Shown here in pieces: positions 4,739 to 23,384 of a DNA stretch of 29,790 nucleotides (its first letter is position 1; the number at the start of each line of letters is the position of its first letter). Origin of the DNA: a virus; the IMG/VR virus record IMGVR_UViG_3300028384_000443, positions 1 through 29,790 of that record, one strand, 5' to 3'. The notes beneath the pieces were generated by a model. It was not told the origin of the DNA. It ran no database searches and was given only the letters and a program-made list of their open reading frames with translations. The position numbers and the translations under genes are program-made.

Positions 4739-6904
4739 TCACGCAAAGAAGTAGTCTGACTTCTTTACTTTATTAATATCTAAAGTACCTAACTCAGGTC
4801 TTTCTATAATTCCTTCATAGGTATTTAATATGCTACGTTCAATAACTTCATAGTAGTTATCCTGATCGTACATCTGTACGAATATATGTTTAGTTAAGTC
4901 AAGTAGATCATCTACTTCACTAGCATGTGTAGAATAGCTATCATGGATAGCACCAAAGGCACCACCCCAGTTAGCAATAACCAAAGCCATGTGACTTGCA
5001 TCAAGACTATGGATATAGTTTGGAGAGATACCACAAGCAAATCCTCGTTTGTCTACTGAGTCTGTTTCAACAACAGCTCTGTGTGTAATCAGACCACGTT
5101 TACCATAACCTGCTATTGTGCCCTTCTGGGTTATAGACTTAGTATGATAGTTGTAGTATTCAACAAAGAAACCAGATGGTGTTACCCACCTGATGTTGTC
5201 ATCTGTTTCTACAATAGCTGCTGCTAGTTTCTGAAGATACTTCATAGTCTTTAGTGGACCAGTACATGTCATCTCAATTGCTTTAATTAAATCTCTTGAG
5301 AATCCCATACACATTTTATCATCGATGCAGTACTGTTTATCCATACCTTCTTTACGTAGATCATTCACCATGTTCTCAGCAATCTTCTGAGCACCTGCAG
5401 AGTAAGCTCGTGTCATACTACCACGTTTAGATATACCTTTACGTATCTTCTTCATAGGCATACGACTCAGTATGTCAGATCTAGATTCATCTTTAGTAAT
5501 ACTAATGAGTCTCTTTGCTGTTTGAACATAGAAATCTTGTTGTATGTCTACAGGTACAAGACCTACAAGTTCACCTGTACGATAGTCTTTAGAGATAGCA
5601 CCTAAGTGCTGCCACCCGTTGTTACTACCATCGATTGGGATAGGTAGACCAGAGTAATACACACCATCTGAGATAATGTAGTTGTTAATCTCATGACACA
5701 CAGCAAGATAACTTACAGGTTTCTCTGCATTCATGTGTATGTTATTCAACTCAGCTGTTAATTGAATCTCAGTTAAGTGTTGCATTGTCCACTCAATACG
5801 ATCAGCTAACACCATCTTATCTACAGAGATATCTTCAAGACCTTCTGATTCTAAATAGGATTTATAATCTGCACTACACCATTCAGGGATCTGATCTATC
5901 TTATAACTCTGATTAAATGAACTAGCTGCGTGGATACACATCCAATCAAACCCACGTTCATCTACAGCTTTCTTCTCATGGAATAAGAAGAGTCCTCGTG
6001 CTGTATCAGAACCTTGGAAGTTAAACATTGTCTCTCTATTGTAGACTCTACCTCGATAGTCAAAGTCCATGAGTGAGTAGAACTTCTTACCTAATAACAT
6101 CTCAGCTTTACTTAGAGTAAAGTCCAACTCAATCTTCTTAGATCGTCTACGTTCTTCTTCATGTTTATCTTTACATGGTACATCAGTTACAATCTTCTCT
6201 GACTGTAGTTTAAGTGCATTGAATACTTCTTCATTGATACGCCAAGGAGTCTGCTGTAAATGGTTTATAGCCTTCATAGCTGGCATATCCTTTAGGCTTG
6301 CACACTTCTCATGCTGATCAAAGCTCCACCCCTTAACAATTGGGTAGCGTCCTACAATCTCACCATCTCTTTCTACACGTTGCATCACACCGTGTACGTC
6401 TTTAGGTCTATCAAAGACTGTACCTCGTAGCCTATACTTGGATAGTTCTTCTGGCATCTGACCAAAATCCCTAACCCATTTATCAGTTACTGTAAGAATA
6501 GTGATAGAGTCTACAACATCTACTTCTTCCTTTTCTTTATTCTTAACTTTCTTTTTACCTAACACTCTACGTTCAATGTTGATGTATTCATTTTGATAGA
6601 ATGCTTCTATATACAAATCACCAATACGTACATGATCATTCCATTGGAGTTCATCATCGTACAAGAGTCGAGCTATCTCAACTCCTATCTTAGTGGATAC
6701 TTGAGTGAGCTTAGCTGTTCCTACTGGATCATCAGTTTTATCTCGTGTAAATGCATGACCTATAATGTCGTATGCAATCACACTTGTCTGTGGTAATATA
6801 GAATCTACATCACCATAATCTTTTAAGAATGCTACACCAAAGGAAGGCTTACCTCTTTGAGTAAGCTTCCCCTTAATGTAACCTTGAATGAGTTCTAAGC
6901 TCAT
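4739..6904 (-). CDS. T7-like single-subunit DNA-dependent RNA polymerase
   Basis: 721 aa from the ATG that follows GAGGACTGAT; an in-frame TTG four codons upstream overlaps the primase stop and is less likely. It shows D282-Y-R-G-R286 followed by FNFQGSDTARG, motif A P-I-D425-G-S-N-N-G-W-Q-H, motif B with K493 and Y501, and motif C I-H654-D655-S. In T7 these positions build the two-metal active site (D537, D812) and the nucleotide-binding O-helix (K631, Y639). The protein is about 160 residues shorter than the 883-aa T7 enzyme, mainly upstream of the palm, so the promoter-binding N-terminal domain is reduced. Two positions differ from T7: Lys489 (after Arg488) stands where R627 is, and Ser502 replaces G640. 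It probably transcribes middle and late genes from the T7-like promoters near 17230, 22665 and 23375. Confidence 0.96.
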   Translation of the reverse strand: MSLELIQGYIKGKLTQRGKPSFGVAFLKDYGDVDSILPQTSVIAYDIIGHAFTRDKTDDPVGTAKLTQVSTKIGVEIARLLYDDELQWNDHVRIGDLYIEAFYQNEYINIERRVLGKKKVKNKEKEEVDVVDSITILTVTDKWVRDFGQMPEELSKYRLRGTVFDRPKDVHGVMQRVERDGEIVGRYPIVKGWSFDQHEKCASLKDMPAMKAINHLQQTPWRINEEVFNALKLQSEKIVTDVPCKDKHEEERRRSKKIELDFTLSKAEMLLGKKFYSLMDFDYRGRVYNRETMFNFQGSDTARGLFLFHEKKAVDERGFDWMCIHAASSFNQSYKIDQIPEWCSADYKSYLESEGLEDISVDKMVLADRIEWTMQHLTEIQLTAELNNIHMNAEKPVSYLAVCHEINNYIISDGVYYSGLPIPIDGSNNGWQHLGAISKDYRTGELVGLVPVDIQQDFYVQTAKRLISITKDESRSDILSRMPMKKIRKGISKRGSMTRAYSAGAQKIAENMVNDLRKEGMDKQYCIDDKMCMGFSRDLIKAIEMTCTGPLKTMKYLQKLAAAIVETDDNIRWVTPSGFFVEYYNYHTKSITQKGTIAGYGKRGLITHRAVVETDSVDKRGFACGISPNYIHSLDASHMALVIANWGGAFGAIHDSYSTHASEVDDLLDLTKHIFVQMYDQDNYYEVIERSILNTYEGIIERPELGTLDINKVKKSDYFFA

Positions 6905-6912
6905 ATCAGTCC

Positions 6913-8565
6913 TCAACTATATGTGAAACCACCTGTACCTGACAGTCGTGTAGTTTCTGGATTATATAATGCGCTACCTGCATCACCAGTTTTACCTGTG
7001 AATCGTGACTTAAGTACACGCAATTGAATTGTGTTACGCTCAGTGTCATTCTGAGCTACTAGGTTACGTGCAAATGCAATGATGTCAAAGCTAATCTGTT
7101 TAATAGAACCAGAACCTTTGATGTCATCGATAGATGCAAGCTGACCTTCTTCAAATGATCTACCACCTAGTGCTTTACGTAGGTGAGAGATAAGACCTAA
7201 CCATACATTGTGTTTCTTTACAATCTTTAATAGGTCAGACATAACTTTATCTACAGCTTCATTACCAGATAGACCCTCAGCACCCTCTGATACAGCAATA
7301 GTAATGTGGTCAAGCACTAAGTACTTACACCCCATCAACGCCATGTATTCAATTTTATCGAGGAGCGAATCATCAGATACACTTCCTTGGTGATCGAGGA
7401 GAACAAGTCTTTCATCCTTAAACACCTTTTCATATCCTCTTCGTAGTTCCTCTTCTGTAACTGGAGGGTGTCCATGTAATGGTCGTTTAAGTGCCATGCT
7501 GATGAACTTCTCTGCGCTATCTCCGATAGATTCTTCCAAAGAAATGAGACCGACTTTATCTTCAGTCTTATCCAATAGATCAAGAACGATCTCTTTAATG
7601 ACAGTAGATTTACCACTACCAGTACCACTAGTGAATAGAGTAATCTCACCTTGACGAATACCTCCTAACTTTTCATTCAAACCACTTAAGCAATCAGGGT
7701 ATGGTACAGACTCTACATTCTGACGTTCTTTAAACTTATCCCATACAGCTTCACCTACAACAATACCTGCAGGACAATATGATTGTGCATCCCAGATAGC
7801 TGTGTTGACAGCCAGTGCTCCACTTTGTAGGTACAACTCTGACGGATCTTTAACAGGCAGCTTAGCAATCTTTACTTTATCAGCACCAATAATCTTTGCT
7901 GCTTGCTCTACTGCATTCTGACCTGCTTCATCTTGATCAAACATCAACACAACTTCTTTGAACTGACGTACCCAATCACGATTCTCAAGGATTGATTTAG
8001 TCATTGAAGCTGAAGGGATAGATACTACAGGGTAGAATCGATTGTACTTCTCGTACATAGATTGAGCTACAGTCATCGCATCTAGCTCACCTTCAGTGAT
8101 TACTAGTTTAGGACCACCACCTGCTACATTCTGACCAAATAGTTCTACACCTTTGAAGTCACCTACAACAGAGAAGTCTTTAGGTAATGCACGTTTCTTG
8201 TAGGCTACAACTGTACCATTCTTAGTATATGGATAGTAGTGAGCAGCAGGTTTGCCATCTTCATCTACCTCCATCTTCACACCGAAGTGATCTACGACTC
8301 GTTTAGTGATACCACGGCTGCTAATATTATAACTAGCGTAGTTAGTAATATCGGAGAGTCTATCAGTACTGATGAAGGGATTGGATTTAACATTGTTTAC
8401 AACTCCCATTTGGGTGTCCTCTGATTTAAAGTTAGTGTTACAAGAGAAGCAGTAGCTGCTACCATCTTCTCTGATTGCTCGTGCATCACTGCTGCCACAA
8501 GCTTTACATGGTTGTCTTGTTAATACAATTGGAGAGTTAGTTCCATTTGCGCTCGAAGATTTCAT
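6913..8565 (-). CDS. Primase-helicase, T7 gp4-like
   Basis: 550 aa. An N-terminal zinc ribbon C20-x2-C23-x15-C39-x2-C42 has the same spacing as T7 gp4. The TOPRIM primase core follows, with T-E158-G-E-L-D162 and F-D210-Q-D212 as metal-binding acids. A RecA-type hexameric helicase domain comes next: Walker A G-T-G-S-G-K319-S-T, a Walker B strand KYLVLDHI, and an SHLRK motif. The C terminus ends GGFTYS, a Phe-containing tail like the T7 gp4 end that contacts DNA polymerase, although it is less acidic. It would unwind DNA ahead of the polymerase and make lagging-strand primers. The start (8565) lies inside the preceding small gene, and the stop is eight bases before the RNA polymerase start. Confidence 0.97.
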   Translation of the reverse strand: MKSSSANGTNSPIVLTRQPCKACGSSDARAIREDGSSYCFSCNTNFKSEDTQMGVVNNVKSNPFISTDRLSDITNYASYNISSRGITKRVVDHFGVKMEVDEDGKPAAHYYPYTKNGTVVAYKKRALPKDFSVVGDFKGVELFGQNVAGGGPKLVITEGELDAMTVAQSMYEKYNRFYPVVSIPSASMTKSILENRDWVRQFKEVVLMFDQDEAGQNAVEQAAKIIGADKVKIAKLPVKDPSELYLQSGALAVNTAIWDAQSYCPAGIVVGEAVWDKFKERQNVESVPYPDCLSGLNEKLGGIRQGEITLFTSGTGSGKSTVIKEIVLDLLDKTEDKVGLISLEESIGDSAEKFISMALKRPLHGHPPVTEEELRRGYEKVFKDERLVLLDHQGSVSDDSLLDKIEYMALMGCKYLVLDHITIAVSEGAEGLSGNEAVDKVMSDLLKIVKKHNVWLGLISHLRKALGGRSFEEGQLASIDDIKGSGSIKQISFDIIAFARNLVAQNDTERNTIQLRVLKSRFTGKTGDAGSALYNPETTRLSGTGGFTYS

Positions 8566-8696: not shown

Positions 8697-10382
8697 TCAT
8701 TGACACGCTAAGCATTCATCTTTAGATGCCTGAACACCTGCCTTAGAGTACACATAGTACAAAGCTAAGATGTTAGGATCAAGGAATGCTTCTTTATGCA
8801 CCTCGTTAATATAAGATTCATCTTCTTCTGCTGAGAAGAATAGGTTTAATGATTGCCACTGGTCAATATACTTGGCTCGTGCTGATGCCATCTGTACTAC
8901 AGACTTCTGAGGAATTTCAAAGGCAGTACGGAATACTTCTTTCTCATCATCTGTTAACCAGTCTTCTTCTTGAACACTACCCATGTTGTCACGGATACGT
9001 TCAACTGTTCTTTTGTTATACACATCACGCTCTAGCATTAGTGCATACAGAACAGGGTTGACTCGATCAACTTCACCTGCTGCTGTACGTTGTGTGAATA
9101 CCATAGCTGTGTCTGGGTTGATACCTTCTGATATACCACCCATGATTAGTGCTGTAGATTTAGTAGGAGCTACTGCAATACGATGGGTGTTAGCCATATC
9201 GTATCCTTCCATCCACTCAGGCACACCATAGTGTTCTGCTACCCAACGTGATGCTCGCTTTGATTCATCATCTAGTTTCTTAAACACTTCATTGTTTAGT
9301 ACCATAGATTCAAAGCCACCAAATGGTAGACGACGTTGTTGCAGTAGGGTGTGGAAACCACAGACACCTAGACCTAATGCTCTAGATTTCTTAGTGAATG
9401 TCCATGCTTTCTCTAGACCTGCTACGTTCTTAGATCGTTCAAGGAACTCTTGAGCTACAGCATCTAGGAACACAGTAGCATTGAATACTGCATCGGTATC
9501 TTTCCATTCGTCATATGTAGCTAGGTTCATAGATGATAGTACACAAGTGTAGGTGTGATTTTCATCAGAGTGCAGCATGATTTCAGCACACAGTTGTGGT
9601 GACTTGATATCTAGATCATGCTTTACGTACCACTCTGGTCTTTTCGCATTCGCTTTATCAGGGAAGAAGAAGTAACCTTTGCCTGTAACCATCTTTGTAT
9701 ACATTGCTTTCTTGTAGCGAGCTGTTGCATCATCTTCTCCATGCTCAAGCTTATTAATAAAAGCATCATCAACACACCACCCAATGTTATTGCCATCAGG
9801 GTTATGAAGGAGATGGTCACAAACTTCATAGAAGTCGCCATGATCCATCGGAAGATAACCCGCCCACGATCCACGACGTGCTGTTCCTTGTGCAACGTAT
9901 TCCATATCGTGTTGGAAACCTTTGATAACTGGTAAGACACCTGATGATTTTCCTCCTACTGAAATCTCTGATCCACGTGGTCTGATGTCACCAAGATATG
10001 ATGCTGTACCAAACCCGTTCTTAGTTAGTGCTGCTATTTCCCGTTTAGCAGAATATATATCATCAATGCTATCTGCAATATAACTACCTGCACAGCTAAC
10101 AGGTAGCCCCCTCGTCGTACCAATGTTCGCAAGGACGGGAGTCGAAGGCGACAACCATCCTTTCCAAAGCAATTCATAGAACTTAATCCTCCATTCTCCT
10201 GGATCAGGGGTATGAGCTGCTAACGTATGAGCAATACGCATGTATTGTTCTTTAGGATTCTCTGCTTGATATAAATACTTCTCTTTGAATAGCTGCCACC
10301 CACCTGTGGTGTACCATTCAGGGCATAGACCCTCTTCTTGTAAACGCTTACGCTCTTCAGATAACTTAGAATACAAAGCCAT
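8697..10382 (-). CDS. nrdA: Class I ribonucleotide reductase, large (alpha) subunit
   Basis: 561 aa from the ATG of MALYSKLSEE, preceded by GAGAGGAG; the frame is open further upstream inside nrdB, so 10403 or 10433 are alternative starts. With NrdB it reduces ribonucleoside diphosphates to supply dNTPs. Visible catalytic parts (numbered from 10382) are the redox Cys in PVSC97AG, C265-A-E267 (radical Cys and Glu), C280 in TC280VLSS, the radical-transfer Tyr pair ALY542-Y543, and the C-terminal thiol pair C557-L-A-C560. The residue two before C265 is Gln, where E. coli has Asn437. There is no N-terminal ATP cone (561 versus about 760 aa in E. coli), so overall dATP inhibition is probably absent, which suits a lytic phage. 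The start overlaps the nrdB end by 17 bases. Confidence 0.95.
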   Translation of the reverse strand: MALYSKLSEERKRLQEEGLCPEWYTTGGWQLFKEKYLYQAENPKEQYMRIAHTLAAHTPDPGEWRIKFYELLWKGWLSPSTPVLANIGTTRGLPVSCAGSYIADSIDDIYSAKREIAALTKNGFGTASYLGDIRPRGSEISVGGKSSGVLPVIKGFQHDMEYVAQGTARRGSWAGYLPMDHGDFYEVCDHLLHNPDGNNIGWCVDDAFINKLEHGEDDATARYKKAMYTKMVTGKGYFFFPDKANAKRPEWYVKHDLDIKSPQLCAEIMLHSDENHTYTCVLSSMNLATYDEWKDTDAVFNATVFLDAVAQEFLERSKNVAGLEKAWTFTKKSRALGLGVCGFHTLLQQRRLPFGGFESMVLNNEVFKKLDDESKRASRWVAEHYGVPEWMEGYDMANTHRIAVAPTKSTALIMGGISEGINPDTAMVFTQRTAAGEVDRVNPVLYALMLERDVYNKRTVERIRDNMGSVQEEDWLTDDEKEVFRTAFEIPQKSVVQMASARAKYIDQWQSLNLFFSAEEDESYINEVHKEAFLDPNILALYYVYSKAGVQASKDECLACQ

Positions 10383-11328
10383 CGCCTGTCCAACTCCTCT
10401 CATATTGGTTACCAATTGACACAAAGAAATCATTCATTGCATATCCGTTAATGCTCTTGTAGAATGTTTCAGCAATTGGGTTGTGTGTTACTTTATACAG
10501 ATTCTTAAAGCCTAAGTTCTGCATACAAATGTTAATACGTGATTTAACAAAAGCATCTAGTTGTGCTTCTGTAATACCATCGATGTCACCTTTCTCAAAG
10601 ATTTTCTCAATGATCTTTTGCTCGTGCTCATATACTTTCTTAGCTACTAGCTTTACTTTCTTCTCAAACTCAGCAAGATCTATTTGATCTCCCATCTCTT
10701 GGATAAGCGTTCGCGTAAGCCATGCACTCCCTTCAGCGTGTAACGCCTCATCTCTGGCACTGAAGTTAATACCTGATACCACGTTAAGGAGTTTGTTCTT
10801 TCCTGCAGTTTGGAAGTGCTTGAGGTAAGCGAAGCTTGAGTAAAGGACTGCACCCTCAATAAAAGTGAATGCAGCCATCGCATAAGGCAGATCTTCACTT
10901 GCAAGTATGTCATCGAGAAAATCAATACGATCTTTAAGAACTGGATCTTCAGTGTATGAATTATAGAATTCATCTGTTGCAAGGTTAAGTTCCTCATTTA
11001 GTTTAGCGTAGAATGGTGCATGTACTGACAATTCAATAGCACCAAATAGTGATGCCATAGATTGTATCTCAGGTCGTGGGAAGTTATCCATTACCTTAGT
11101 CATCCAGAACTCTTCACCAATAATTAGTTCATACTTAGTAAATAGTTTTAAGGTAGTGATTACACCATGACGTTCTGATTCTGTCATGTTAACTAGGATA
11201 TCCTGTTTATCCTTACCTACTTTAATCTCTTCAGGTGTCCAGAAAATATTAGCTTGTTTGTTTCTGAACTCTACTGCAGCAGGGTAATCAACTGTGTATG
11301 TCTTCTTCGTTGTCGTTATCCTTGACAT
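10366..11328 (-). CDS. nrdB: Class I ribonucleotide reductase, small (beta) subunit
   Basis: 320 aa, a ferritin-like all-helical protein that makes the tyrosyl radical passed to NrdA. Candidate iron ligands are E67 (KYELIIGEEFW), E99 and H103 (IE99LSVH103), E158 (FIE158G), E194 and H197 (DE194ALH197). Y107, four residues after H103, matches the E. coli radical Tyr122. The first E-H pair is spaced E-x3-H rather than the usual E-x2-H. The C-terminal end GDGFVF is the expected docking tail for the large subunit. The ATG lies inside the resolvase gene (41-base overlap) with only a weak AGAAG upstream, so expression may depend on translation of that gene. Confidence 0.95.
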   Translation of the reverse strand: MSRITTTKKTYTVDYPAAVEFRNKQANIFWTPEEIKVGKDKQDILVNMTESERHGVITTLKLFTKYELIIGEEFWMTKVMDNFPRPEIQSMASLFGAIELSVHAPFYAKLNEELNLATDEFYNSYTEDPVLKDRIDFLDDILASEDLPYAMAAFTFIEGAVLYSSFAYLKHFQTAGKNKLLNVVSGINFSARDEALHAEGSAWLTRTLIQEMGDQIDLAEFEKKVKLVAKKVYEHEQKIIEKIFEKGDIDGITEAQLDAFVKSRINICMQNLGFKNLYKVTHNPIAETFYKSINGYAMNDFFVSIGNQYERSWTGDGFVF

Positions 11329-11722
11329 ATTCTTCTATCTTGACCTCTAAATACTCGTCACCTTTCTTAACTATGAATTTCTCCATAGTAATATGATAGA
11401 CTTTGTTATCGTTAAACTCTTCATACATACTTTGATATGTATCTAAGAGTGGTTTAATACAATTGTCTAAGTCAGCACCTCGGTTAGACAGACCTGCTCT
11501 AATATCAAAACAGACCTGACTATCACCGAAGCACCACTCAAACTTATCCCCATCTATATTTAATATAGTATCACGTATCTCGTTCTGATACTCCAGATAC
11601 TCCGTCGACTTGAACTTCCTCTTGCCCTTCCAACCCCACATCGCATTCGTCGACAGGGGTTTCACTTGGATCTTGTGAGTCATCGTCTTTGGTTTCTTCT
11701 GGTTCTTCTTTGTTGTACTCAT
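11288..11722 (-). CDS. RusA-like Holliday junction resolvase
   Basis: 144 aa. The C-terminal half carries the RusA signature: G-A-D84-L-D86-N-C-I-K90, then D105 in FND105NKV. The spacing D-x-D, +4 to Lys and +19 to the last Asp equals that of E. coli RusA D70, D72, K76 and D91. It would cleave branched DNA before packaging, the job done by gp3 in T7. The start at 11722 is supported by GGGAGG eight bases upstream. That start is inside the exonuclease gene, giving a 152-base overlap in different frames. The first 15 residues are Lys- and Thr-rich and are probably not part of the fold. Confidence 0.9.
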   Translation of the reverse strand: MSTTKKNQKKPKTMTHKIQVKPLSTNAMWGWKGKRKFKSTEYLEYQNEIRDTILNIDGDKFEWCFGDSQVCFDIRAGLSNRGADLDNCIKPLLDTYQSMYEEFNDNKVYHITMEKFIVKKGDEYLEVKIEEYVKDNDNEEDIHS

Positions 11723-12389
11723 TAAATTCCTCCCAAGATTGTAGCATATATAGTAGTTTGTAATCTCTAGTTGCTATACCATCTGGGTATCCATTATCAG
11801 CATACGCTTTTCGTACAACTCTTTCCATATCCTCAGTCTTTACACCTTCAAGAATCTTCTCAGCTTTCTTAGGACCAATACCTTTAATGCCTGGAATACC
11901 ATCAGAAGTATCACCTGTTAACCATTGTAACATCAATGACTTATATGCATCTACAGGTTCCATGTGATAGTGAAGATCTTTGTTGTAGTTGTAGTGTGGA
12001 CCTGGGATTTGATTTAGATCCTTATCAATATGGGCTAAGATAAACTGTTCACCCTTGTTGATACACTCCCAACACCAGATAGAACATAAGTCATCAGCTT
12101 CCATACCATCTGCTTGGATAGCGTTATACTTTTCTATCATGTGATTGTGAGCGTAGTTAAGTTTCTTCTTTAGATCCTCAGCAATCGGAGGTCGATTAGA
12201 CTTGTAGTCAGGATATACATCATATCGAAAGTTACCTTTACCTTTAACTGCAACACGTGGTTCACCCATAAAACACTGACCTTCAATGTTCAACATGATA
12301 TCTTTGATGTTCTTTCGGATATCTTTGTTAGAGTTAGCTGTTACAGCAGCCTTAAACAGAATACTATCTGCGTCAATTATAGTGTACAT
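11571..12389 (-). CDS. 5'-3' exonuclease / flap endonuclease (T7 gp6-like)
   Basis: 272 aa with the FEN family pattern: D6-A-D8 at the N terminus, a Y-x-D-Y-K-S-N-R stretch (58-66), E97-A-D99-D100, D122-K-D124, and LTGD160TSD163 followed by the helix-hairpin-helix GIPGIKGIGPKKAEKIL. It would degrade host DNA and remove RNA primers. Translation starts from a perfect AAGGAGG that overlaps the stop of the DNA polymerase gene. From about residue 222 the protein becomes an acidic, low-complexity tail (EEPEETKDDDSQDP) encoded by DNA that also encodes the start of the RusA-like protein, so this tail may be a by-product of the overlap. Confidence 0.95.
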   Translation of the reverse strand: MYTIIDADSILFKAAVTANSNKDIRKNIKDIMLNIEGQCFMGEPRVAVKGKGNFRYDVYPDYKSNRPPIAEDLKKKLNYAHNHMIEKYNAIQADGMEADDLCSIWCWECINKGEQFILAHIDKDLNQIPGPHYNYNKDLHYHMEPVDAYKSLMLQWLTGDTSDGIPGIKGIGPKKAEKILEGVKTEDMERVVRKAYADNGYPDGIATRDYKLLYMLQSWEEFNEYNKEEPEETKDDDSQDPSETPVDECDVGLEGQEEVQVDGVSGVSERDT

Positions 12390-12398
12390 GCGTCCTCC

Positions 12399-14231
12399 TT
12401 AGTGTACATCTGCGTAGCTAGAGCCGATGACATAATCACCACCATCCATACATTCTACACCAAACCATTTAGGTGCTTCAGTAAATGCATCTTTCATGAT
12501 AGTGCCTAGTCGTTCAGCATCATCTGGGTGACAAGTAAATGCCATCTCATCGTGATAGAAGATACGTGGTTTAGCTCGTAGGTTTTCTTCTTTTACTTTA
12601 TCTAGCACACACATACAGGCAGCTTTACAGGTAATACCCTCTGCTGTTTGCAGTAAGTAGTTGAGTACTTGATGACTACCATCTACGAAGATAGGTCTAC
12701 CATCTAAACCTTTGACCCAACCTACACCTTGACGTGCTTCATGCTCTGCCCACTCACCTTCGACTCGATCTTTAAGTTCTTTCAATCCAGGGATTGCCTT
12801 AGCAAATGCAGCTTTACAGGTAGCACCTAGCTTAGCATCTCGATAACCTCGAAGTACCTCACCTAGTTTAGCATCACCACCACCGAACATGTAACAATAC
12901 AGGAATCCTTTAGATGTCTGTCGAGATATGTCAAATCCTGCAGCCTTAGTCAAAGCATCAGCATTTCGTTGGTGTTGGTCCCCGTTAATGATCTCATTAG
13001 TGAAGTCTGGGTTACCAATGTAGTGAGCTAGACCACGCAGTTGGTTACCTGCTGAGTCACACCCCACGATAACATCCCCCTCATCAGCCTTGAGCATCTC
13101 CCTAAGCGGTTTTCCGTATAGGGTAGATACCGAGGGTAGGTTAACGATTACTTCGTGTCTACAGCGCATTGAGGGCGTTCCTATGGTCCACATGTTGCCA
13201 TGCAGTCTACCATCCTTGACTTGATCTAACCAACCTTCGATTACAGCTAGTCGATTACGCAAGGTGTAGTACTCAGAGAGTAGTTCACCATCCCTACCGA
13301 ATGCTTGGAGAGATGTTTCTGTAAACTTAGGACCTTGGTTTACCCATTTACCATTGATTTTCTTACGTGTGTAGTCATCTGGTTTCCACCCTTGTTCTAA
13401 TAACCAATCTTTAACTAGTGCAGTCTGACCTAATCGGATCTGTTCCTCACGCTTACGTTGGAACTGAGTGCCTGGAGCCATCAGTTGTGTGTCTGTTGGC
13501 TTAACTTCACAACCAAAGTAGTCAGAAAGAATACGACACGTTACAGCATTGTATGTGCCATCCTTCTTAAACTTAGGAGTCTTAGGTTCTTTATCAATGA
13601 AGACAGTAGTCTTTCCTAGTTTAGGTTCTAGTATACCTTCAATTTGAAACATGCGTTCTTCAAACATTGCTTTAGTTTGAATAGCTAGATCCATGTCGAA
13701 GTTCCATCCTTCTTCACGCATCTGTGTATTCATCTTAGCAATTGAATGCTCTACTTGCATACCCTTCTGAATTAGAGGATTAGTTTTGTATATTGCAGCA
13801 TACTCTTTGCTTACTCTGCGATACACATCCAAGTTTACTTTACAGTCTTGGATACAATAGTCTAACATCTCTTGTGAGAATTGTGACCAGTCATGGTAAT
13901 CAATCTTCTTGTTACCTAAGTGTTCACCCCAACCTGCAAGACCATGTTTGTGTCCACGTTTAAACTGTAATGCCTGAGACATAATTAATGTATCATGGCA
14001 AGGTTTATCCATCAGGTTAGTGCCGTACAATCGATCTACAGTTGGGATGTCAAAGCCAATAATATTATGCCCGATGAGACGACTGCTATTAGAAAGGGCA
14101 GTGATTCCCTTATGAACATCATCAGGACCATACGCATTAACTTCCTCCGTATCTACGTCAATTGTTACAATACACCAGATCTTAGTTGCATCAAGACCAT
14201 CAGTTTCTATGTCGAATAATAAGTTACTCAT
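12399..14231 (-). CDS. DNA polymerase, family A, with 3'-5' exonuclease
   Basis: 610 aa. The proofreading domain has Exo I F-D7-I-E9-T-D, Exo II IGHNIIGFD and Exo III YCIQD. The polymerase domain has motif A C-D392-S-A-G-N-Q397-L-R, motif B R437-x3-K441-G-F-L-Y445, and motif C Y-H-D561-E. D392 and D561 bind the catalytic metals. Y445 is at the position of E. coli F762 and T7 Y526, where Tyr lowers discrimination against dideoxynucleotides and is common in lytic phages. Q397 replaces the usual Glu (T7 E480). At 610 aa it is shorter than T7 gp5 (704). The AAGGA start site lies just downstream of a hairpin (14253-14273), which may modulate expression. Confidence 0.97.
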   Translation of the reverse strand: MSNLLFDIETDGLDATKIWCIVTIDVDTEEVNAYGPDDVHKGITALSNSSRLIGHNIIGFDIPTVDRLYGTNLMDKPCHDTLIMSQALQFKRGHKHGLAGWGEHLGNKKIDYHDWSQFSQEMLDYCIQDCKVNLDVYRRVSKEYAAIYKTNPLIQKGMQVEHSIAKMNTQMREEGWNFDMDLAIQTKAMFEERMFQIEGILEPKLGKTTVFIDKEPKTPKFKKDGTYNAVTCRILSDYFGCEVKPTDTQLMAPGTQFQRKREEQIRLGQTALVKDWLLEQGWKPDDYTRKKINGKWVNQGPKFTETSLQAFGRDGELLSEYYTLRNRLAVIEGWLDQVKDGRLHGNMWTIGTPSMRCRHEVIVNLPSVSTLYGKPLREMLKADEGDVIVGCDSAGNQLRGLAHYIGNPDFTNEIINGDQHQRNADALTKAAGFDISRQTSKGFLYCYMFGGGDAKLGEVLRGYRDAKLGATCKAAFAKAIPGLKELKDRVEGEWAEHEARQGVGWVKGLDGRPIFVDGSHQVLNYLLQTAEGITCKAACMCVLDKVKEENLRAKPRIFYHDEMAFTCHPDDAERLGTIMKDAFTEAPKWFGVECMDGGDYVIGSSYADVH

Positions 14232-15919: not shown

Positions 15920-16221
15920 AGCTCTTCCTCTATTAGTTTAGTTAAATAGTGTTGAGCCTTACGTAAGTCTTCTACACCACCTTTATCTTTGTACCTACTA
16001 ATGTATTTTATTACATTACCACGCAGGTAACCTAGGAATTCATATTCAGACATTACTGCTTTCATATAATCCCAAGGTTGAATATCTTTTTGATAGTGGC
16101 TACCACCAATCTGTGTACTATCAGCCCCAAATTGGGTACGATCATCCCTCTTTTGGGTACGTTTAGCTTGGTTCTTTTTAGCCACTGCATCACATACTTC
16201 ACGGTATGTTAGTTCAGACAT
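15916..16221 (-). CDS. DUF3310 / T7 gp1.7-like protein (nucleotide kinase family)
   Basis: 101 aa. The C-terminal two thirds match the DUF3310 pattern: QIGGSHYQK, QPWDYM, LGYLRGNVIKYISRYKDKGG, then DLRKAQHYLTKLIEEE. T7 gp1.7, which carries the same domain, is a nucleotide kinase affecting dideoxythymidine sensitivity, so a role in nucleotide metabolism next to the RNR genes is reasonable. The N-terminal 30 residues are Lys/Arg-rich and variable. GAGGA precedes the start, and it overlaps the HNH gene by eight bases. Confidence 0.88.
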   Translation of the reverse strand: MSELTYREVCDAVAKKNQAKRTQKRDDRTQFGADSTQIGGSHYQKDIQPWDYMKAVMSEYEFLGYLRGNVIKYISRYKDKGGVEDLRKAQHYLTKLIEEEL

Positions 16222-16666
16222 TTGTTAATTCCTCATTGTATTTATCATAGTGGTATCGTAAGTAATATGTACAAAACTTCAACAACTCTTTATCCGTTGC
16301 ATTACATTTCATTGTATTGGCAAGATTAGATATGATTTGTATGTTATCTGGTGTGTAACCTTTATTTGGATCTATACGATCTAGACTAGGGCTTGTACCT
16401 CTATTTCCACCAATTGTAAATGTAGTGCCTAATATAGGACATTTGTTATCTTCAGACCACACTCTGTAAATATCGTATTTATCTATATCCACATTCCATT
16501 TATTTCTGTCTTTAGCACGAAGAATCATTTTACCTACTACACGACTCATTAAAAGACCAAGTTCACCTTGAAATTTATTATAACACTCATTACATATATC
16601 TTTGTGCATCGATGGTGTCTGGTTGTGGCAATGACCCATAGCACATTCTTTAGTTTCTTCTGTCAT
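16214..16666 (-). CDS. HNH-type endonuclease with N-terminal zinc finger
   Basis: 150 aa. Cys8, Cys13, Cys25 and Cys28 could bind zinc (C-x4-C-x11-C-x2-C). The nuclease part contains CPILGT and the characteristic SLDRIDPNKGYTPDNIQIIS, then N-x3-K, the usual beta-beta-alpha core of phage HNH enzymes. It could be a free-standing homing endonuclease or a nuclease for host DNA breakdown or packaging. It is embedded in an operon with overlaps on both sides (8 and 17 bases), which favours long residence over recent homing insertion. Confidence 0.85.
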   Translation of the reverse strand: MTEETKECAMGHCHNQTPSMHKDICNECYNKFQGELGLLMSRVVGKMILRAKDRNKWNVDIDKYDIYRVWSEDNKCPILGTTFTIGGNRGTSPSLDRIDPNKGYTPDNIQIISNLANTMKCNATDKELLKFCTYYLRYHYDKYNEELTNV

Positions 16667-16859
16667 TGTTTGTCCTCAGTTTCTGTATCATAGAAGCAGT
16701 CTGATTCAACACCTGATCTAGTATGTCAACATAATCATCCATTGTAATCATGTGTTTGTGGTACATACTATCTAGTTGATCTTTAGCATCCTCAGATGCT
16801 TCTAATACATATTTAATCTTTGAGTCCAAGCTCACGTAGTTTTGCGTCGAGTTCTTCAT
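16650..16859 (-). CDS. Small helical hypothetical protein, 69 aa
   Basis: Ends LRTNNDRRN inside the start of the HNH gene and begins within the end of the gene upstream (47-base overlap), so the true start may be further in; no strong ribosome site is visible. The sequence (EASEDAKDQLDSMYHKH, DYVDILDQVLNQTASMIQKL) is predicted as helical hairpin. No family recognised. Confidence 0.6.
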   Translation of the reverse strand: MKNSTQNYVSLDSKIKYVLEASEDAKDQLDSMYHKHMITMDDYVDILDQVLNQTASMIQKLRTNNDRRN

Positions 16860-17196
16860 CTGTCATTTCATCCGTACTAATCTCAGTGTTAGTTTGATCT
16901 ACACGCGCAAGTTTAGGTTGCTCGAATTCTGCTAGTATAGCTGCTAGACGTGAAGCTTCTTCATAGTCTTCTGCTTGTACAGCTTTTAACATTGATAGTT
17001 TTAACACACCGATGGCAGACACATCCTGGGTTAACTCATCTACGTCAACCTTAAGTTCTGCAGCAGTGAGCTTAAGTTTTTCCCGTGCTTCTTTATTAGC
17101 CATACGGGATGCTACGGATTTCTTTTGCATATCCGCTGCATTTAGTTTAGTAATCTTTGGAGCTAGATTATCCAGAGATTTAGGATTGTATGCCAT
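16813..17196 (-). CDS. Possible terminase small subunit or DNA-binding protein, 127 aa
   Basis: The ATG at 17196 follows GGGAGG; the open frame extends upstream into non-coding DNA. The N terminus MAYNPKSLDNLAP resembles the start common in phage small terminase subunits. The middle is a Lys/Ala-rich helical segment with a possible helix-turn-helix (LTAAELKVDVDELTQDVSAI), and the end is an acidic helix (MTDEELDAKLRELGLKD). It is the first gene after promoter P1 (about 17230). A small terminase normally lies next to the large one, which is 6.4 kb away on the other strand; a separate location occurs in some podoviruses. The assignment is weak. Confidence 0.45.
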   Translation of the reverse strand: MAYNPKSLDNLAPKITKLNAADMQKKSVASRMANKEAREKLKLTAAELKVDVDELTQDVSAIGVLKLSMLKAVQAEDYEEASRLAAILAEFEQPKLARVDQTNTEISTDEMTDEELDAKLRELGLKD

Positions 17197-17220: not shown

Positions 17221-17248
17221 CTTTCCTATAAGGGAACATATTCTAAGT
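17221..17248 (-). promoter_or_regulatory. T7-like phage promoter P1 (leftward)
   Basis: The minus strand reads GAATATGTTCCCTTATAGGAAAG. Aligned on the TATA-GG start, it shares about 11 of 17 upstream positions with the T7 consensus (AATA, G at -11, C at -7, TATA at -4 to -1, GG at +1/+2). Twenty bases (ACTTAGAATATGTTCCCTTA) are identical to P2. It lies about 30 bases before the ATG of the 127-aa gene. Confidence 0.85.
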
Positions 17249-17297: not shown

Positions 17298-17326
17298 GAG
17301 CGCGATGTCGGTTGACTAAAAATAAC
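17298..17326. repeat. GCGATGTCGGTT repeat, copy A
   Basis: A 29-base element with core GAGCGCGATGTCGGTT followed by an A-rich end (AAAAATAAC). It matches copy B (17351-17379) at 26 of 29 positions. No coding frame of meaningful length runs through it. Confidence 0.85.
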
Positions 17327-17350: not shown

Positions 17351-17379
17351 GAGCGCGATGTCGGTTAGGTAAAAATAAC
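17351..17379. repeat. GCGATGTCGGTT repeat, copy B
   Basis: Direct repeat of copy A, 53 bases away. In the leftward direction it comes directly after the hairpin terminator at 17387-17408 and supplies its T-rich tail (GTTATTTTT) before the AACCGACATCGC core. Confidence 0.85.
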
Positions 17380-17386
17380 AAAGAGA

Positions 17387-17408
17387 TACTAGGGAGTTAC
17401 CCCTAGTA
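17387..17408 (-). terminator. Intrinsic terminator ending the early leftward unit
   Basis: A perfect 8-bp stem TACTAGGG / CCCTAGTA with a 6-base loop, then (leftward) TCTCTTTGTTATTTTT. It lies 11 bases past the stop of the gene at 17420 and before promoter P1, so it divides the leftward block into two transcription units. Confidence 0.85.
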
Positions 17409-17419
17409 CCTCTAAGTAT

Positions 17420-20885: not shown

Positions 20886-21107
20886 TCAAGCAATGTTACG
20901 ATTGTAGTTAGAAGACCAGTTTAAGGTCTTGAATAGGATACGTGATTGTCCCACAATATCCATTGGTGATAAACCATGAGAAGCACATTGCTGTTCATAG
21001 TTACTGACGATGGTTTCGATAACCTCTTTGGTTAAGGTTTCGTCACCATATTCTTCTTCATACACACCACGAAGGTTGTATGCAAATTGACTATTTGTAA
21101 AAGTCAT
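20886..21107 (-). CDS. Hypothetical protein, 73 aa
   Basis: The start at MTFTNSQFAYNLRGVYEEEY is preferred over a longer Met-rich frame because GAGG precedes it. It overlaps the membrane-protein gene by 17 bases. A small helical protein with a central conserved-looking motif ETIVSNYEQQC and no known relatives. Confidence 0.65.
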   Translation of the reverse strand: MTFTNSQFAYNLRGVYEEEYGDETLTKEVIETIVSNYEQQCASHGLSPMDIVGQSRILFKTLNWSSNYNRNIA

Positions 21108-21294
21108 CATCATCCTCATCATTGAAGTAGTCTTGGTATTCTTCTTCTGATTCAAATTCTATTCGATCATTCATGTCGATAAAGAATACATCTTCTGGTA
21201 GAATTTTATTACAAATCCATGCAGCTGCATAACCTAAGACTAGGAATGGAGTAGCAAGGAAATAGGCTAAGGCAGGTGGTTTGTGTACAATCAA
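21091..21294 (-). CDS. Small membrane protein with acidic tail, 67 aa
   Basis: One transmembrane segment (PALAYFLATPFLVLGYAAAW) followed by a polar, very acidic C terminus (SEEEYQDYFNDEDDDDFYK). The apparent start is a TTG with GGGGGT upstream; no ATG is available before the membrane segment, so the start is uncertain. It is the first gene after the terminator that follows SSB. Holin, inhibitor or envelope-modifying functions are all possible. Confidence 0.6.
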   Translation of the reverse strand: MIVHKPPALAYFLATPFLVLGYAAAWICNKILPEDVFFIDMNDRIEFESEEEYQDYFNDEDDDDFYK

Positions 21295-21302
21295 GATACC
21301 CC

Positions 21303-21330
21303 CGCGATGTCGGTTAGAGTGAAAAATATT
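21303..21330. repeat. GCGATGTCGGTT repeat, copy C
   Basis: CGCGATGTCGGTTAGAGTG followed by AAAAATATT. It shares the core and A-rich end with the two copies near 17300-17380 and, like copy B, directly follows a leftward terminator hairpin. Confidence 0.8.
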
Positions 21331-21364
21331 AGGAGAACCCTAGCATTGCACTAGAGTTCCCCTA
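21330..21364 (-). terminator. Intrinsic terminator after the SSB gene
   Basis: A 14-position stem with 12 pairs (21330-21343 with 21351-21364), 7-base loop, then leftward AATATTTTTC. It begins seven bases past the SSB stop. Confidence 0.85.
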
Positions 21365-21370
21365 AGTGTG

Positions 21371-21841
21371 TTAGAACATGACTGCGATGTCACCTTCATC
21401 ATCTGAGGCATCTGCCCCTTCGATGACTGAGAAGCCACCTGCTGGGTTGTATTCCTCAAGTTGTACAACCTGCACTGCTACAAGTTGTGTGGCAATACCC
21501 TTGCGACCTGCGGTGTCATAAGGATATTGGAACAACTGCACATTGCCGATAGAGCCATTGCCGATGATAGCAGGATCTAACTCTTTTGTAGCAGCGTCTA
21601 CAACAAGCACTGGTTTGTTCGGAGTGCCATCCGCTTTCTTAGCTTTACGCTTAAGAGAGACAGTGAACTTGCCATCACGCTCTTTGACAGTGAGGTGATT
21701 TGCTGAGAGTTCATCTGCAACAGCTTTATCAGTAGTGGCAATCTGTAGCTCCCACTGTTCTGTACCGAATGGTGCAACAGGCTTGTCAAGTTTAGCCCAG
21801 TTGAGTTCTACGTTATCTACACGATAGTTACGTTTTTGCAT
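21371..21841 (-). CDS. Single-stranded DNA-binding protein, T7 gp2.5-like
   Basis: 156 aa from MQKRNYRVDNVELNWAKL, which follows AAGGGGAAT; the longer frame upstream lacks a site. The body has an OB-fold-like strand pattern (WELQIATTDK, FTVSLKRKAKKADG, NVQLFQYPYD, GIATQLVAVQVVQL). The C terminus is GADASDDEGDIAVMF, an acidic tail ending in Phe as in T7 gp2.5, where it contacts DNA polymerase and helicase. It would coat single-stranded DNA and coordinate the replisome. The neighbouring terminator ends its transcript. Confidence 0.85.
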   Translation of the reverse strand: MQKRNYRVDNVELNWAKLDKPVAPFGTEQWELQIATTDKAVADELSANHLTVKERDGKFTVSLKRKAKKADGTPNKPVLVVDAATKELDPAIIGNGSIGNVQLFQYPYDTAGRKGIATQLVAVQVVQLEEYNPAGGFSVIEGADASDDEGDIAVMF

Positions 21842-21905
21842 AATATTCCCCTTGGATATGCATGAGTGATTTGAGAGTGAACCGAGATTCACATTTCCAG
21901 TTAAC

Positions 21906-21925
21906 AGCCGACGCGAAGCTAGGCT
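21906..21925. repeat. Interspersed hairpin element, copy 2
   Basis: AGCCGACGCGAAGCTAGGCT, with one extra C-G pair outside. It lies in the 95-base leader of the SSB gene, about 65 bases before its ATG. A nearby AGTGAACCGAGA is shared with the 17330 region. Confidence 0.8.
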
Positions 21926-21936
21926 GCAGAGAGTGA

Positions 21937-22131
21937 CTAAGAGTTGAGTGAGATACCACTACGATTAGTACCATTGAGTAGGTAGTAGTAGTATGAATGA
22001 GAGATCTCAAACTTGTTGCATATAGCATCTACAGTGAGAGATTTCATACGTTCCCTCATTGCATGTCTTTCTGCATCGAGTTGAAAGATCATTTGTACAT
22101 CCTCATCAGAGAGTTTGTAACGTTTATCCAT
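21937..22131 (-). CDS. Small helix-turn-helix DNA-binding protein, 64 aa
   Basis: GGAGG six bases before the ATG. LTVDAICNKFEISHSYYYYLL has the spacing of a helix-turn-helix with a Tyr-rich recognition helix, preceded by a basic, Met-rich helix. It is likely a transcription regulator, or a host-directed one, expressed early. It overlaps the stop of the preceding gene by 8 bases (ATGGATAA). Confidence 0.75.
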   Translation of the reverse strand: MDKRYKLSDEDVQMIFQLDAERHAMRERMKSLTVDAICNKFEISHSYYYYLLNGTNRSGISLNS

Positions 22132-22255
22132 GTGAAACCTCCACGATGGTGAGAGATGAGCATTGAGCTACAATATCAGAGAGATGTTTGTAGTCTGTGC
22201 TGTAAGCTATAACCTTACCATCTTTGTCTACAACAAAGTATTTTGTTTTATCCAT
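22124..22255 (-). CDS. Very small hypothetical protein, 43 aa
   Basis: Reads MDKTKYFVVDKDGKVIAYST and ends IVEVSHG. The pattern of two strands, a helix and a strand is typical of tiny phage accessory proteins. Its start sits in an ATGGATAA overlap with the previous stop and its stop in an identical overlap with the next start. Confidence 0.65.
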   Translation of the reverse strand: MDKTKYFVVDKDGKVIAYSTDYKHLSDIVAQCSSLTIVEVSHG

Positions 22256-22379
22256 TGAGTTTATCCTCTAGATATTTGATACGTATTTTAGTCTCAGCTA
22301 TTTGGAATCTAGACATGAGATGAGAGAACATCTCTAGATCTAGTCTGAGATTGTCTAACAGTTGTTGATCTGTACACAT
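22248..22379 (-). CDS. Very small helical hypothetical protein, 43 aa
   Basis: AAGGA about 10 bases before the ATG. Leu- and Asp-rich (MCTDQQLLDNLRLDLEMFSH), probably a single amphipathic helix or coiled coil. Support comes from the ribosome site and the 8-base overlap with the next gene. Confidence 0.6.
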   Translation of the reverse strand: MCTDQQLLDNLRLDLEMFSHLMSRFQIAETKIRIKYLEDKLNG

Positions 22380-22380
22380 A

Positions 22381-22548
22381 TTACAATAATCCTTGAAGTA
22401 GACCAAGAAGAGCAATTGTAAGTATGCCTAGAGACACCACACCAAGTACACCTCCAATCCAACCAATAGATGGTATTTGGTGATCTTGACATGATCTAAC
22501 AATGTATCCTAGACCAATGAACATTAAGAGTAAGATAATGAGTTCCAT
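22381..22548 (-). CDS. Small two-helix membrane protein, 55 aa
   Basis: MELIILLLMFIGLGYIV is one membrane segment and the Gly/Leu/Val-rich stretch from GWIGGVLGVVSLG to the end is the second. A short polar loop (RSCQDHQIPS) lies between. AAGGA precedes the start. Topology is holin-like, but its location in the early block argues for another role, such as membrane depolarisation or exclusion. Function unknown. Confidence 0.7.
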   Translation of the reverse strand: MELIILLLMFIGLGYIVRSCQDHQIPSIGWIGGVLGVVSLGILTIALLGLLQGLL

Positions 22549-22558
22549 AAGTGATCCT

Positions 22559-22586
22559 TAACCTTTTGGTTAGACACTAAAGTGTC
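22559..22586. other. Two adjacent hairpins in the early-gene leader
   Basis: TAACC-TTTT-GGTTA is followed directly by GACAC-TAAA-GTGTC, in the untranslated leader between promoter P2 and the gene at 22548. They may stabilise the transcript or serve as RNase processing sites. Confidence 0.6.
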
Positions 22587-22650
22587 CTTAAGTGTAACTT
22601 AGAGTGATGATGTATGATGTCCCATCTAACACATACTTAGAGGTACACCC

Positions 22651-22678
22651 CCCTCCATTAAGGGAACATATTCTAAGT
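22651..22678 (-). promoter_or_regulatory. T7-like phage promoter P2 (leftward)
   Basis: The minus strand reads ACTTAGAATATGTTCCCTTA (identical to P1), then ATGGAGGG. The TATA of P1 and P3 is TAAT here, so its strength may differ. It is about 105 bases before the first gene of the early cluster (22548). Confidence 0.75.
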
Positions 22679-22714
22679 ACATGAAAGATAAGACAAAATA
22701 CTAAACTTCAGTTT

Positions 22715-22728
22715 GATGCTAAAGCATC
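22715..22728 (-). terminator. Weak terminator-like hairpin after the first leftward gene
   Basis: GATGC-TAAA-GCATC lies four bases past the stop of the 143-aa gene. It has the same loop as the hairpin at 22573 but no good T-run, so termination would be partial. Confidence 0.5.
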
Positions 22729-22731
22729 TTG

Positions 22732-23163
22732 TTAACGAGGAATCCAAGTGTGATTCTTGAGATGATCCTCAGCTTCTTCACGAGTGCCGTAGTACTCGCT
22801 GTAACGGTCATATGGACCTTCCTCTGGGTGGAAAGTACCTATGTAGTAACCTGCAGCAGATTGGCATACGCGAGCCTTGAGATGTTCTGGTACATCTTCT
22901 GATGACTCTTTGATGTCACGAATGTCACATGAAGCGAGATTACGGATTACTTGAAGTTGATCTTCAGGTAGATTTGAAGCGTCATGAGCAATGAAGTCCA
23001 TAACCATACGGTATTGACTCAACGCAGCATCGACGAAACCTTCTTGAATCATGTAGAGAGACTCTTCGCGAGCAGCATTGAGAGTGTCTGTGAAGTAGCG
23101 TAAGTCTTCTACTGGTACGTTTGAAGGAGTTTGTGGAGAGTAGAATTGATTGAAAGTGTTCAT
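22732..23163 (-). CDS. Hypothetical early protein, 143 aa (first leftward gene)
   Basis: AGAGGATCTT precedes the ATG. The N-terminal two thirds look helical (DTLNAAREESLYMIQEG and following). The C-terminal 40 residues form a separate small motif (AGYYIGTFHPEEGPYDRYSEYY, then REEAEDHL). No family recognised. It is the gene nearest the control region, upstream of promoter P2, so it must be served by a different promoter. It is a candidate for the first protein made after infection. Confidence 0.8.
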   Translation of the reverse strand: MNTFNQFYSPQTPSNVPVEDLRYFTDTLNAAREESLYMIQEGFVDAALSQYRMVMDFIAHDASNLPEDQLQVIRNLASCDIRDIKESSEDVPEHLKARVCQSAAGYYIGTFHPEEGPYDRYSEYYGTREEAEDHLKNHTWIPR

Positions 23164-23213
23164 AAGATCCTCTTGGTATGAACTGAAAGAAAAGCTATAT
23201 TAGCCCACACAAG

Positions 23214-23233
23214 AGCCGCAGCGTAGCGAGGCT
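23214..23233. repeat. Interspersed hairpin element, copy 3
   Basis: AGCCGCAGCGTAGCGAGGCT; the same outer stem as copies 1 and 2, with inner loop GTA instead of GAA. It lies 50 bases before the first leftward gene. Confidence 0.75.
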
Positions 23234-23362
23234 AAGATACTACAGATGATGCTAGAAGTCTGCTGAGAATGGACTACAGAGCTTGTGTCTCAATCACTCT
23301 CGGTTACTCTAAGTCCACTCCAAGTCCACCCAAAGATCCCGCAACTCCCTCTGCTAGTTCTC

Positions 23363-23384
23363 AATATGTTCCCTTATAGGAAGG
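23363..23384 (+). promoter_or_regulatory. T7-like phage promoter P3 (rightward)
   Basis: AATATGTTCCCTTATAGGAAGG on the plus strand, identical to P1 through GGAA. It points toward the terminase, portal and capsid genes, 268 bases before the terminase ATG. Confidence 0.85.

What the first reader, a model, noticed from the sequence alone, without database searches (positions are those of the whole stretch)
4739..23384. Three T7-type promoters that match gene direction
P1 (17221-17248, left), P2 (22651-22678, left) and P3 (23363-23384, right) share AATATGTTCCCTTA with TATAGG or TAATGG, and agree with the T7 consensus at about 11 of 17 upstream bases. All point along the gene block they precede. 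This makes them likely targets of the 721-aa T7-like enzyme and gives a compact specificity for a shortened polymerase.
Basis: partly seen in the sequence, partly recalled or inferred. Interest (0 to 1): 0.75.

Follow-up and report, generated by a model that had tools for sequence, protein, structure and literature searches.

The report
Phage promoters for its own polymerase
Three near-identical short DNA signals in this marine phage look like start sites for the phage's own one-piece RNA polymerase, and relatives carry their own versions in the same places, which shows how an abundant but little-studied ocean phage group probably switches its genes on.

Summary
AATATGTTCCCTTA is the only 14-mer present three times in the 29,790-base contig; 0 of 200 dinucleotide shuffles contain any such 14-mer. 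All three copies point along the genes that follow. Agreement with the T7 consensus is 10, 8 and 10 of 17, not about 11, and alone would be weak evidence: 258 positions of the contig reach 10 or more. Conservation makes the case. The contig belongs to the Roseobacter phage CRP-7 group. Relatives bearing the same polymerase carry their own repeated motif, different upstream but with the same kind of core (CCCT.TATAGG or CCTATTA). In 16 contigs, 53 of 56 sites point at the next gene and one lies deep inside a called gene. A left/right pair at the early/late divide recurs, as with P2 and P3. The polymerase keeps T7's catalytic residues and its model superposes on the T7 polymerase-promoter complex over its whole length. 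I conclude that P1-P3 are promoters of the phage polymerase: known in kind, undescribed for this group in the papers I could search. Recognition itself is untested. A terminator plus a TAACCGACA element precedes P1; its function is unknown.

The parts
17221..17248 (-). P1: phage-polymerase promoter, predicted +1 at 17226; 30-nt leader with GGGAGG, then ATG at 17196
22651..22678 (-). P2: leftward promoter (variant TAATGG), predicted +1 at 22656; the first bases of its transcript can form a hairpin
23358..23386 (+). P3: rightward (late) promoter, predicted +1 at 23379, 273 nt before the terminase start codon
4739..6916 (-). T7-type single-subunit RNA polymerase (725 aa from TTG; 721 aa from the ATG at 6904)
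   Evidence: PF00940 E=1.6e-58; PHROG 414 E=8.7e-106; model pLDDT 87.5; 1CEZ Z 30.4, 653 residues, 2.9 A
17382..17413 (-). intrinsic-terminator-like hairpin upstream of P1, followed by a T-rich tract
   Evidence: folding z -5.9
17359..17367 (-). TAACCGACA element, first copy
17306..17314 (-). CAACCGACA element, second copy, 88 nt before the predicted +1 of P1
21329..21365 (-). second terminator-like hairpin
21308..21316 (-). TAACCGACA element after the 21365-21329 hairpin
4457..4510 (.). inverted repeat (AAAAAAAATACCCCCAAG ... CTTGGGGGTTTATTTTTT) between the converging gene blocks, probably a two-way terminator
16813..17196 (-). first gene after P1 (127 aa, no PHROG match)
16214..16666 (-). 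endonuclease VII-like, in the P1 block
12399..14231 (-). family A DNA polymerase, in the P1 block
11571..12389 (-). 5'-3' exonuclease, in the P1 block
11288..11722 (-). RusA-like resolvase, in the P1 block
8697..11328 (-). class I ribonucleotide reductase large and small subunits, in the P1 block
6913..8565 (-). primase-helicase, in the P1 block
21371..21892 (-). gp2.5-like ssDNA-binding protein, in the P2 block
23652..25304 (+). terminase large subunit, first large gene after P3
25654..27885 (+). SU10-type portal protein, P3 block
28462..29580 (+). head scaffolding protein, P3 block
854..4450 (+). large gene converging on the polymerase gene, in the place of the large structural-block genes of CRP-7

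Best explanation
P1, P2 and P3 are promoters for the phage's own T7-type single-subunit RNA polymerase. The enzyme reads the motif from about -17 to +4 and starts at the first G of TATAGG (TAATGG in P2). P3 drives the rightward packaging and virion genes. P2 drives the leftward early block. P1 restarts transcription behind a terminator and drives DNA polymerase, exonuclease, nucleotide reductase, primase-helicase and, last, the polymerase gene itself, so the enzyme would amplify its own production. Both directions would end at the two-way terminator between the converging blocks. Shown: the sites, their directions, their recurrence in relatives, the polymerase's family and predicted fold, and the terminator-like hairpin before P1. 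Inferred: recognition by this enzyme, the exact start bases, the order of events and the self-amplifying loop. The source of the first polymerase molecules (leaky or internal host transcription) was not found.
For: Repetition beyond chance. Orientation 3 of 3 in the window, and 53 of 56 sites over 16 contigs with 1 of 56 deep inside a called gene; reversed-motif controls gave 1 hit in all, shuffled motifs at most 0.10 per contig on average. Motifs were found without reference to T7, as noncoding repeats, in 6 of 10 contigs, 10 of 12 and in one more, G011. A left/right pair at the early/late divide recurs, e.g. G009, G003, G016, G034, G032, G010, G040, G011. In CRP-7, an isolate, one site lies 13 nt before the polymerase gene. 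The core ends in T7's TATAGG, or in CCTATTA followed by A or G in CRP-7 and G010. The upstream half (-16..-8) diverges with the polymerase: r=0.50, p=0.0008, 11 genomes. Polymerase: PF00940, catalytic motifs conserved, whole-length superposition on the T7 promoter complex 1CEZ, TM 0.77 by query length. P1 has a 30-nt leader with a ribosome-binding-like GGGAGG before ATG.
Against: No transcript-start, binding or activity data. T7 identity alone is weak (8-10 of 17). P2 deviates at the start region. The specificity loop explains no promoter variation beyond the rest of the enzyme (partial r 0.06, p=0.31; for -13..-8 it is -0.11). The nearest polymerase relatives could not confirm the exact motif: L004 (71% identical) has no copy, but holds mostly sequence downstream of the promoters, and G022 and G027 (54-55%) gave no promoter-like repeat. 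In 14 of 42 upstream regions my scan found no paired site, although at least three of those have sites it missed or could not pair (L032; L063's record; L098 is CRP-7). The motif seeds came from noncoding repeats, so 'mostly intergenic' is partly built in; orientation is not.
Confidence: 0.92

Rival explanations
1. The motif is a binding site of another phage or host DNA-binding protein (repressor, activator or origin protein), not a promoter core.
For: Sites are few, intergenic and near-identical, as operator sites are; the -16..-8 half is phage-specific.
Against: Fixed direction relative to genes (53 of 56), a T7-like +1 region at the downstream end, and short leaders before start codons (P1 30 nt; CRP-7 site 13 nt before the polymerase gene).
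Confidence: 0.04
2. They are promoters for host RNA polymerase with some sigma factor.
For: They are intergenic and directional.
Against: No -35/-10 hexamer pair in the scan coincides with them; sigma-70-like hits in 16500-24000 are at chance level (20 found, 21.8 expected). The conserved block is a single stretch of about 19 bases.
Confidence: 0.02
3. They serve mainly as replication start points, primed by phage-polymerase transcripts, as some T7 promoters do (T7 part recalled).
For: P1 and P2 lie upstream of the replication genes; this is compatible with the promoter reading.
Against: Sites also sit before late structural genes far from replication genes, e.g. CRP-7 38280 and G034 5488.
Confidence: 0.1
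4. Chance repeats or an assembly artefact.
For: Only three copies in one metagenomic contig.
Against: 0 of 200 shuffles; the same arrangement in independent contigs and in the isolate CRP-7.
Confidence: 0.01

Closest known systems
T7 promoters (phi10-type and the A-starting phi2.5 type)
   Same: About 23-bp single-block promoter ending TATAGG; placed just upstream of genes in gene direction; read by a single-subunit polymerase.
   Different: Only 8-10 of 17 bases agree at -17..-1; the -11..-8 bases are GTTC here against GACT in T7; P2 has TAATGG. (T7 consensus recalled and confirmed in a passage of PMC10134795; phi2.5 recalled.)
Phage-specific promoters of Pseudomonas phage LUZ100 (PMC10134795; passages seen)
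   Same: 17-bp motif only partly like T7; one promoter drives the polymerase gene itself, proposed as positive feedback after host read-through of a terminator; LUZ100's polymerase is the second-ranked hit of ours (28.8%).
   Different: LUZ100 has a MarR-like regulator and an integrase, and eight phage-specific promoters derived from transcript mapping; here there are two divergent blocks and only predicted promoters.
Roseobacter phage CRP-7 (MK613349; PMC6918029, passages seen)
   Same: Same two-block layout, same polymerase type (38% identical), five repeated motif sites with 5 of 5 in gene direction.
   Different: Its motif is TATAGTCCCCTATTAAAAGG with a predicted A start; the word 'promoter' does not occur in the main text of the CRP-7 paper.
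Recently mined metagenomic phage polymerases (PMC13029058; passages seen)
   Same: Polymerase and promoter predicted together from metagenomic phage contigs; two polymerases then showed good activity.
   Different: Promoters there were sought through the T7/SP6 core CACTA at -7 to -3, which the motif here does not have.

Membership tests
T7-type (single-subunit phage polymerase) promoters | several near-identical single-block copies per genome | tested here: met
   3 copies, 0 of 200 shuffles; 2-6 sites in each of 16 contigs
T7-type (single-subunit phage polymerase) promoters | copies upstream of genes and in gene direction | tested here: met
   3 of 3 in the window; 53 of 56 over 16 contigs
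T7-type (single-subunit phage polymerase) promoters | TATAG-like initiation region | tested here: met
   TATAGG in P1 and P3, TAATGG in P2
Promoters of phage T7 itself | T7's own specificity bases GACT at -11..-8 | tested here: not met
   GTTC here; so these are not T7 promoters proper, while the wider type varies these bases between phages
T7-type (single-subunit phage polymerase) promoters | recognised and initiated by the cognate polymerase | not testable with these tools
   needs in vitro transcription or 5'-end mapping
T7-type single-subunit RNA polymerases | PF00940 domain above the gathering score | tested here: met
   199 bits against cut-off 22
T7-type single-subunit RNA polymerases | catalytic residues (two Asp, Lys and Tyr of T7; residue roles recalled) | tested here: met
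   DGS, ISKRGSMTRAYS and HDS motifs aligned with T7; their Asp, Lys, Tyr and Asp are invariant in the 8-sequence alignment
T7-type single-subunit RNA polymerases | fold including promoter-binding domain and specificity hairpin | tested here: met
   Model mean pLDDT 87.5 with strands 586-596 and 605-617 in the place of the specificity hairpin; 1CEZ 653 residues at 2.9 A over 1-721
Autographiviridae (T7-like phages) | one-directional genome order with the polymerase gene in the early region (defining features recalled) | tested here: not met
   Two divergent blocks, polymerase gene last in the leftward block, SU10-type portal; the nearest isolate CRP-7 is recorded only as Caudoviricetes, 58 kb

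The most novel reading that the evidence does not exclude
The middle promoter belongs to a conserved relay: a terminator hairpin, a T tract, one or two copies of TAACCGACA, then the phage promoter 50-88 nt further on (window, G005, G003, G028, G025, G024). The element would be a new kind of transcription signal that acts with the terminator, for example stopping or licensing the phage polymerase or blocking read-through, so that the replication genes and the polymerase stay off until the phage enzyme is present. The AACCGACA octamer occurs 28 times between genes against 9 inside genes in 22 contigs; shuffled octamers average 3.8 between genes, maximum 11; 22 of 28 follow a T-rich stretch and 26 of 28 lie in the sense of the gene before.
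Probability: 0.25. Interest if true: 0.6.

Novelty: new member of a known kind. Interest (0 to 1): 0.45.

Why it matters
The CRP-7 group is reported as widely distributed in the ocean (PMC6918029, passages), yet I found no account of how its genes are switched on. The sites turn a polymerase named by similarity into a testable regulon and supply about eleven natural polymerase-promoter types with divergent upstream halves, useful for asking which residues set promoter choice and as candidate orthogonal expression systems.

Tried and rejected
T7 identity as the main argument: rejected, since 258 positions of the contig score 10 or more of 17.

Exact search of IMG/VR for AATATGTTCCCTTATAGG: 0 contigs (the window's own record may be left out there), so the exact motif was found in no other contig of that collection. 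L004 and CRP-7 (first 50 kb) hold no copy of the 14-mer with two or fewer mismatches.

Specificity-loop coevolution: promoter distance at -16..-8 correlates with the loop (r=0.40) but as well with the rest of the enzyme (r=0.50); the partial effect is nil. I do not claim base-residue contacts. The 11 genomes were chosen as roughly one per promoter type, so near-duplicates (G003, G028, G034, G032, G043) were left out.

G011 was picked as a possible negative control because no polymerase was found in it. It turned out to hold only 4.8 kb of the leftward block and to carry its own motif TATCCGTCCCTTATAGGG at 5019 (-), 5343, 9780 and 28372 (+), so it is a further positive.

Core-pattern scan of the polymerase-centred loci L118-L196, only those of 7 kb or more printed: few hits, as expected if promoters lie further upstream; not counted as evidence either way.

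Host sigma-70 promoters: not above chance. Rfam: 0 matches. tRNAs: 0. A 5'-terminal hairpin in P2's transcript also occurs after some other promoters but not consistently.

Literature: papers on CRP-7, LUZ100, phage polymerase specificity and marine T7-like promoters were sought; from titles and the start of abstracts (and passages of three papers) none describes promoters for this group. Only open-licence full texts are in that library.
Full report
WHAT THE WINDOW IS. The window is the whole of one IMG/VR virus record of 29,790 bases. Its nearest isolate is Roseobacter phage CRP-7: portal 55% and polymerase 38% identical, and CRP-7 has the same two-block layout. The leftward block holds, from the divide outward, an ssDNA-binding protein, small genes, endonuclease VII, DNA polymerase, exonuclease, RusA-like resolvase, ribonucleotide reductase, primase-helicase and finally the T7-type RNA polymerase. 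The rightward block begins with terminase, portal and scaffold and runs off the right end; the gene at 854-4450 lies where large structural-block genes lie in CRP-7. The contig is probably about half a genome (inference from CRP-7's 58 kb).

THE SITES. AATATGTTCCCTTA occurs exactly three times. It is the only 14-mer seen three or more times on both strands, and none of 200 dinucleotide shuffles has one. Identity with T7's -17..-1 is 10, 8 and 10 of 17 for P1, P2 and P3; because 258 positions of the contig reach 10 or more, likeness to T7 is suggestive only.

RELATIVES DECIDE THE MATTER. I looked for repeated 18-mers in noncoding DNA of relatives without using the motif or T7. Promoter-like repeats came up in 6 of 10 contigs (the window, CRP-7, G009, G005, G010, G016; not in G001 or G002, which hold little of the regions concerned; G003 and G004 were found with the seed of G005), in 10 of 12 (not in G022 and G027), and in G011. 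They fall into about eleven types. Examples: CRP-7 TATAGTCCCCTATTAAAAGG; G009 ATATGCAACCCTTCTAGGA; G005/G003/G028 CTCGYTAGTCCCTATAGGA; G016/G034/G032 CTCTAAGTTCCTTATAGGGA; G046/G043 CTTTTAAGTACCTTATAGG; G041 TATTTATAGTACCTTATAGGAA; G010 GTGTCTCCTATTAGAGA; G040 TTGTTGTAACCCTTATGG; G025 CTCGGTAGTCTCTATTAGAG; G011 TATCCGTCCCTTATAGGG.

Scanned over 16 whole contigs, both strands, these give 56 sites; 53 point at the next gene of 80 or more codons and one is deep in a called gene (G004 and G033, near-duplicates of G003 and G034, were left out, and G011 was scanned later). The reversed motifs give 1 hit in all, and shuffled motifs at most 0.10 per contig on average. The three exceptions are one site each in G024, G016 (four mismatches) and G032; the G032 site lies in a called 110-aa ORF, and its counterpart in G034 (44602) is in gene direction. 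Several of the 16 are close relatives, so the number of independent cases is nearer the number of types than 16. In 42 terminase-upstream regions, 28 had a core-like site with a second copy in the locus, some of them weak and five of them second views of contigs already counted, and 14 did not.

The P2/P3 arrangement, one promoter facing each way at the early/late divide, recurs (G009, G003, G016, G034, G032, G010, G040, G011). P2's odd TAATGG is also seen in a different type: G005 at 21958 (-), CCCTAATGGGGG, again in the early-facing promoter, so it is probably not a sequencing error.

THE POLYMERASE. It matches PF00940 at 199 bits, keeps the catalytic motifs, and aligns with T7 at the RGK...FL stretch that in T7 is the AT-rich recognition loop (role recalled). 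An AlphaFold2 model from 27 sequences has mean pLDDT 87.5. Against solved structures it superposes over residues 1-721 on the T7 polymerase-promoter complex 1CEZ (653 residues, 2.9 A, Z 30.4, T7 residues 76-883; TM 0.77 by query length). Higher Z scores, up to 36.9, go to T7 elongation complexes aligned over fewer residues. So it is short mainly at the N-terminus; a 'compact specificity' is not shown. Promoter distance at -16..-8 follows polymerase distance (r=0.50, p=0.0008, n=11), but the specificity loop adds nothing beyond the rest of the protein (partial r 0.06, p=0.31).

HOW IT PROBABLY WORKS. Host polymerase would first read the divide region and the leftward block. P1 lies behind a strong terminator-like hairpin (17413-17382; folding z -5.9), with a second hairpin at 21365-21329. 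The polymerase gene is the last of the P1 block, so its output would rise sharply once a little enzyme exists. In LUZ100 the authors propose such a loop from mapped transcripts (PMC10134795, passages seen). P3 then serves the virion genes, and the inverted repeat at 4457-4510 would stop both directions. No host promoter stood out, so how the first polymerase is made remains open.

A SECOND SIGNAL. Between the terminator and the middle promoter lie one or two copies of TAACCGACA. The same order (hairpin, T tract, element, promoter 50-88 nt on) holds in the window, G005, G003, G028, G025 and G024; hairpin z is -4.4 to -5.9 in five of these six and -1.8 in G024. In G009, G022, G032 and G016 the element follows a hairpin without a detected downstream promoter of the same direction. 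The AACCGACA octamer is found 28 times between genes and 9 times inside genes over 22 contigs, between genes in 13 of 22; the mean for shuffled octamers between genes is 3.8, maximum 11. I have no explanation for it.

VERDICT. The sites are almost certainly promoters of a T7-type phage polymerase: a new member of a known kind, in a phage group whose description does not mention promoters (PMC6918029).

Noticed in passing
window 17306-17314, 17359-17367, 21308-21316 (-); also G003, G004, G005, G009, G016, G022, G024, G025, G028, G032, G033, G034: TAACCGACA element directly after terminator hairpins and T tracts, often in tandem, in several contigs upstream of the middle promoter. Function unknown.
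   Followed up: partly
window 22651-22656 (P2) and G005 21958 (-): The early-facing promoter has TAATGG instead of TATAGG in two different promoter types.
   Followed up: partly
G016 50545 (-), G034 5488 (+), CRP-7 38280 (-), G005 21959 (-), window P2: Predicted transcripts of these promoters begin with a hairpin at or near the very 5' end (e.g. GGGAGGTCTTATGATCTCCC), which may protect the RNA; others, including P1 and P3, lack one.
   Followed up: partly
G016 20570-20962 (-) and counterparts in G034, G032: A gene turned against the early block carries its own phage promoter; the G016 protein has a weak match to terminase small subunit (E=0.0037).
   Followed up: partly
window 22732-23163 (-): 143-aa ORF lies upstream of P2, outside the reach of all three promoters, so it may be an immediate-early, host-transcribed gene.
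   Followed up: no
window 8697-11328 against CRP-7 35552-38170: The window encodes class I ribonucleotide reductase in the early block, whereas CRP-7 is annotated with a B12-dependent reductase, in two annotated pieces, in the late block.
   Followed up: no
window 14434-14586: Imperfect repeats spaced 72 and 126 nt inside the 94-aa ORF 14410-14694.
   Followed up: no
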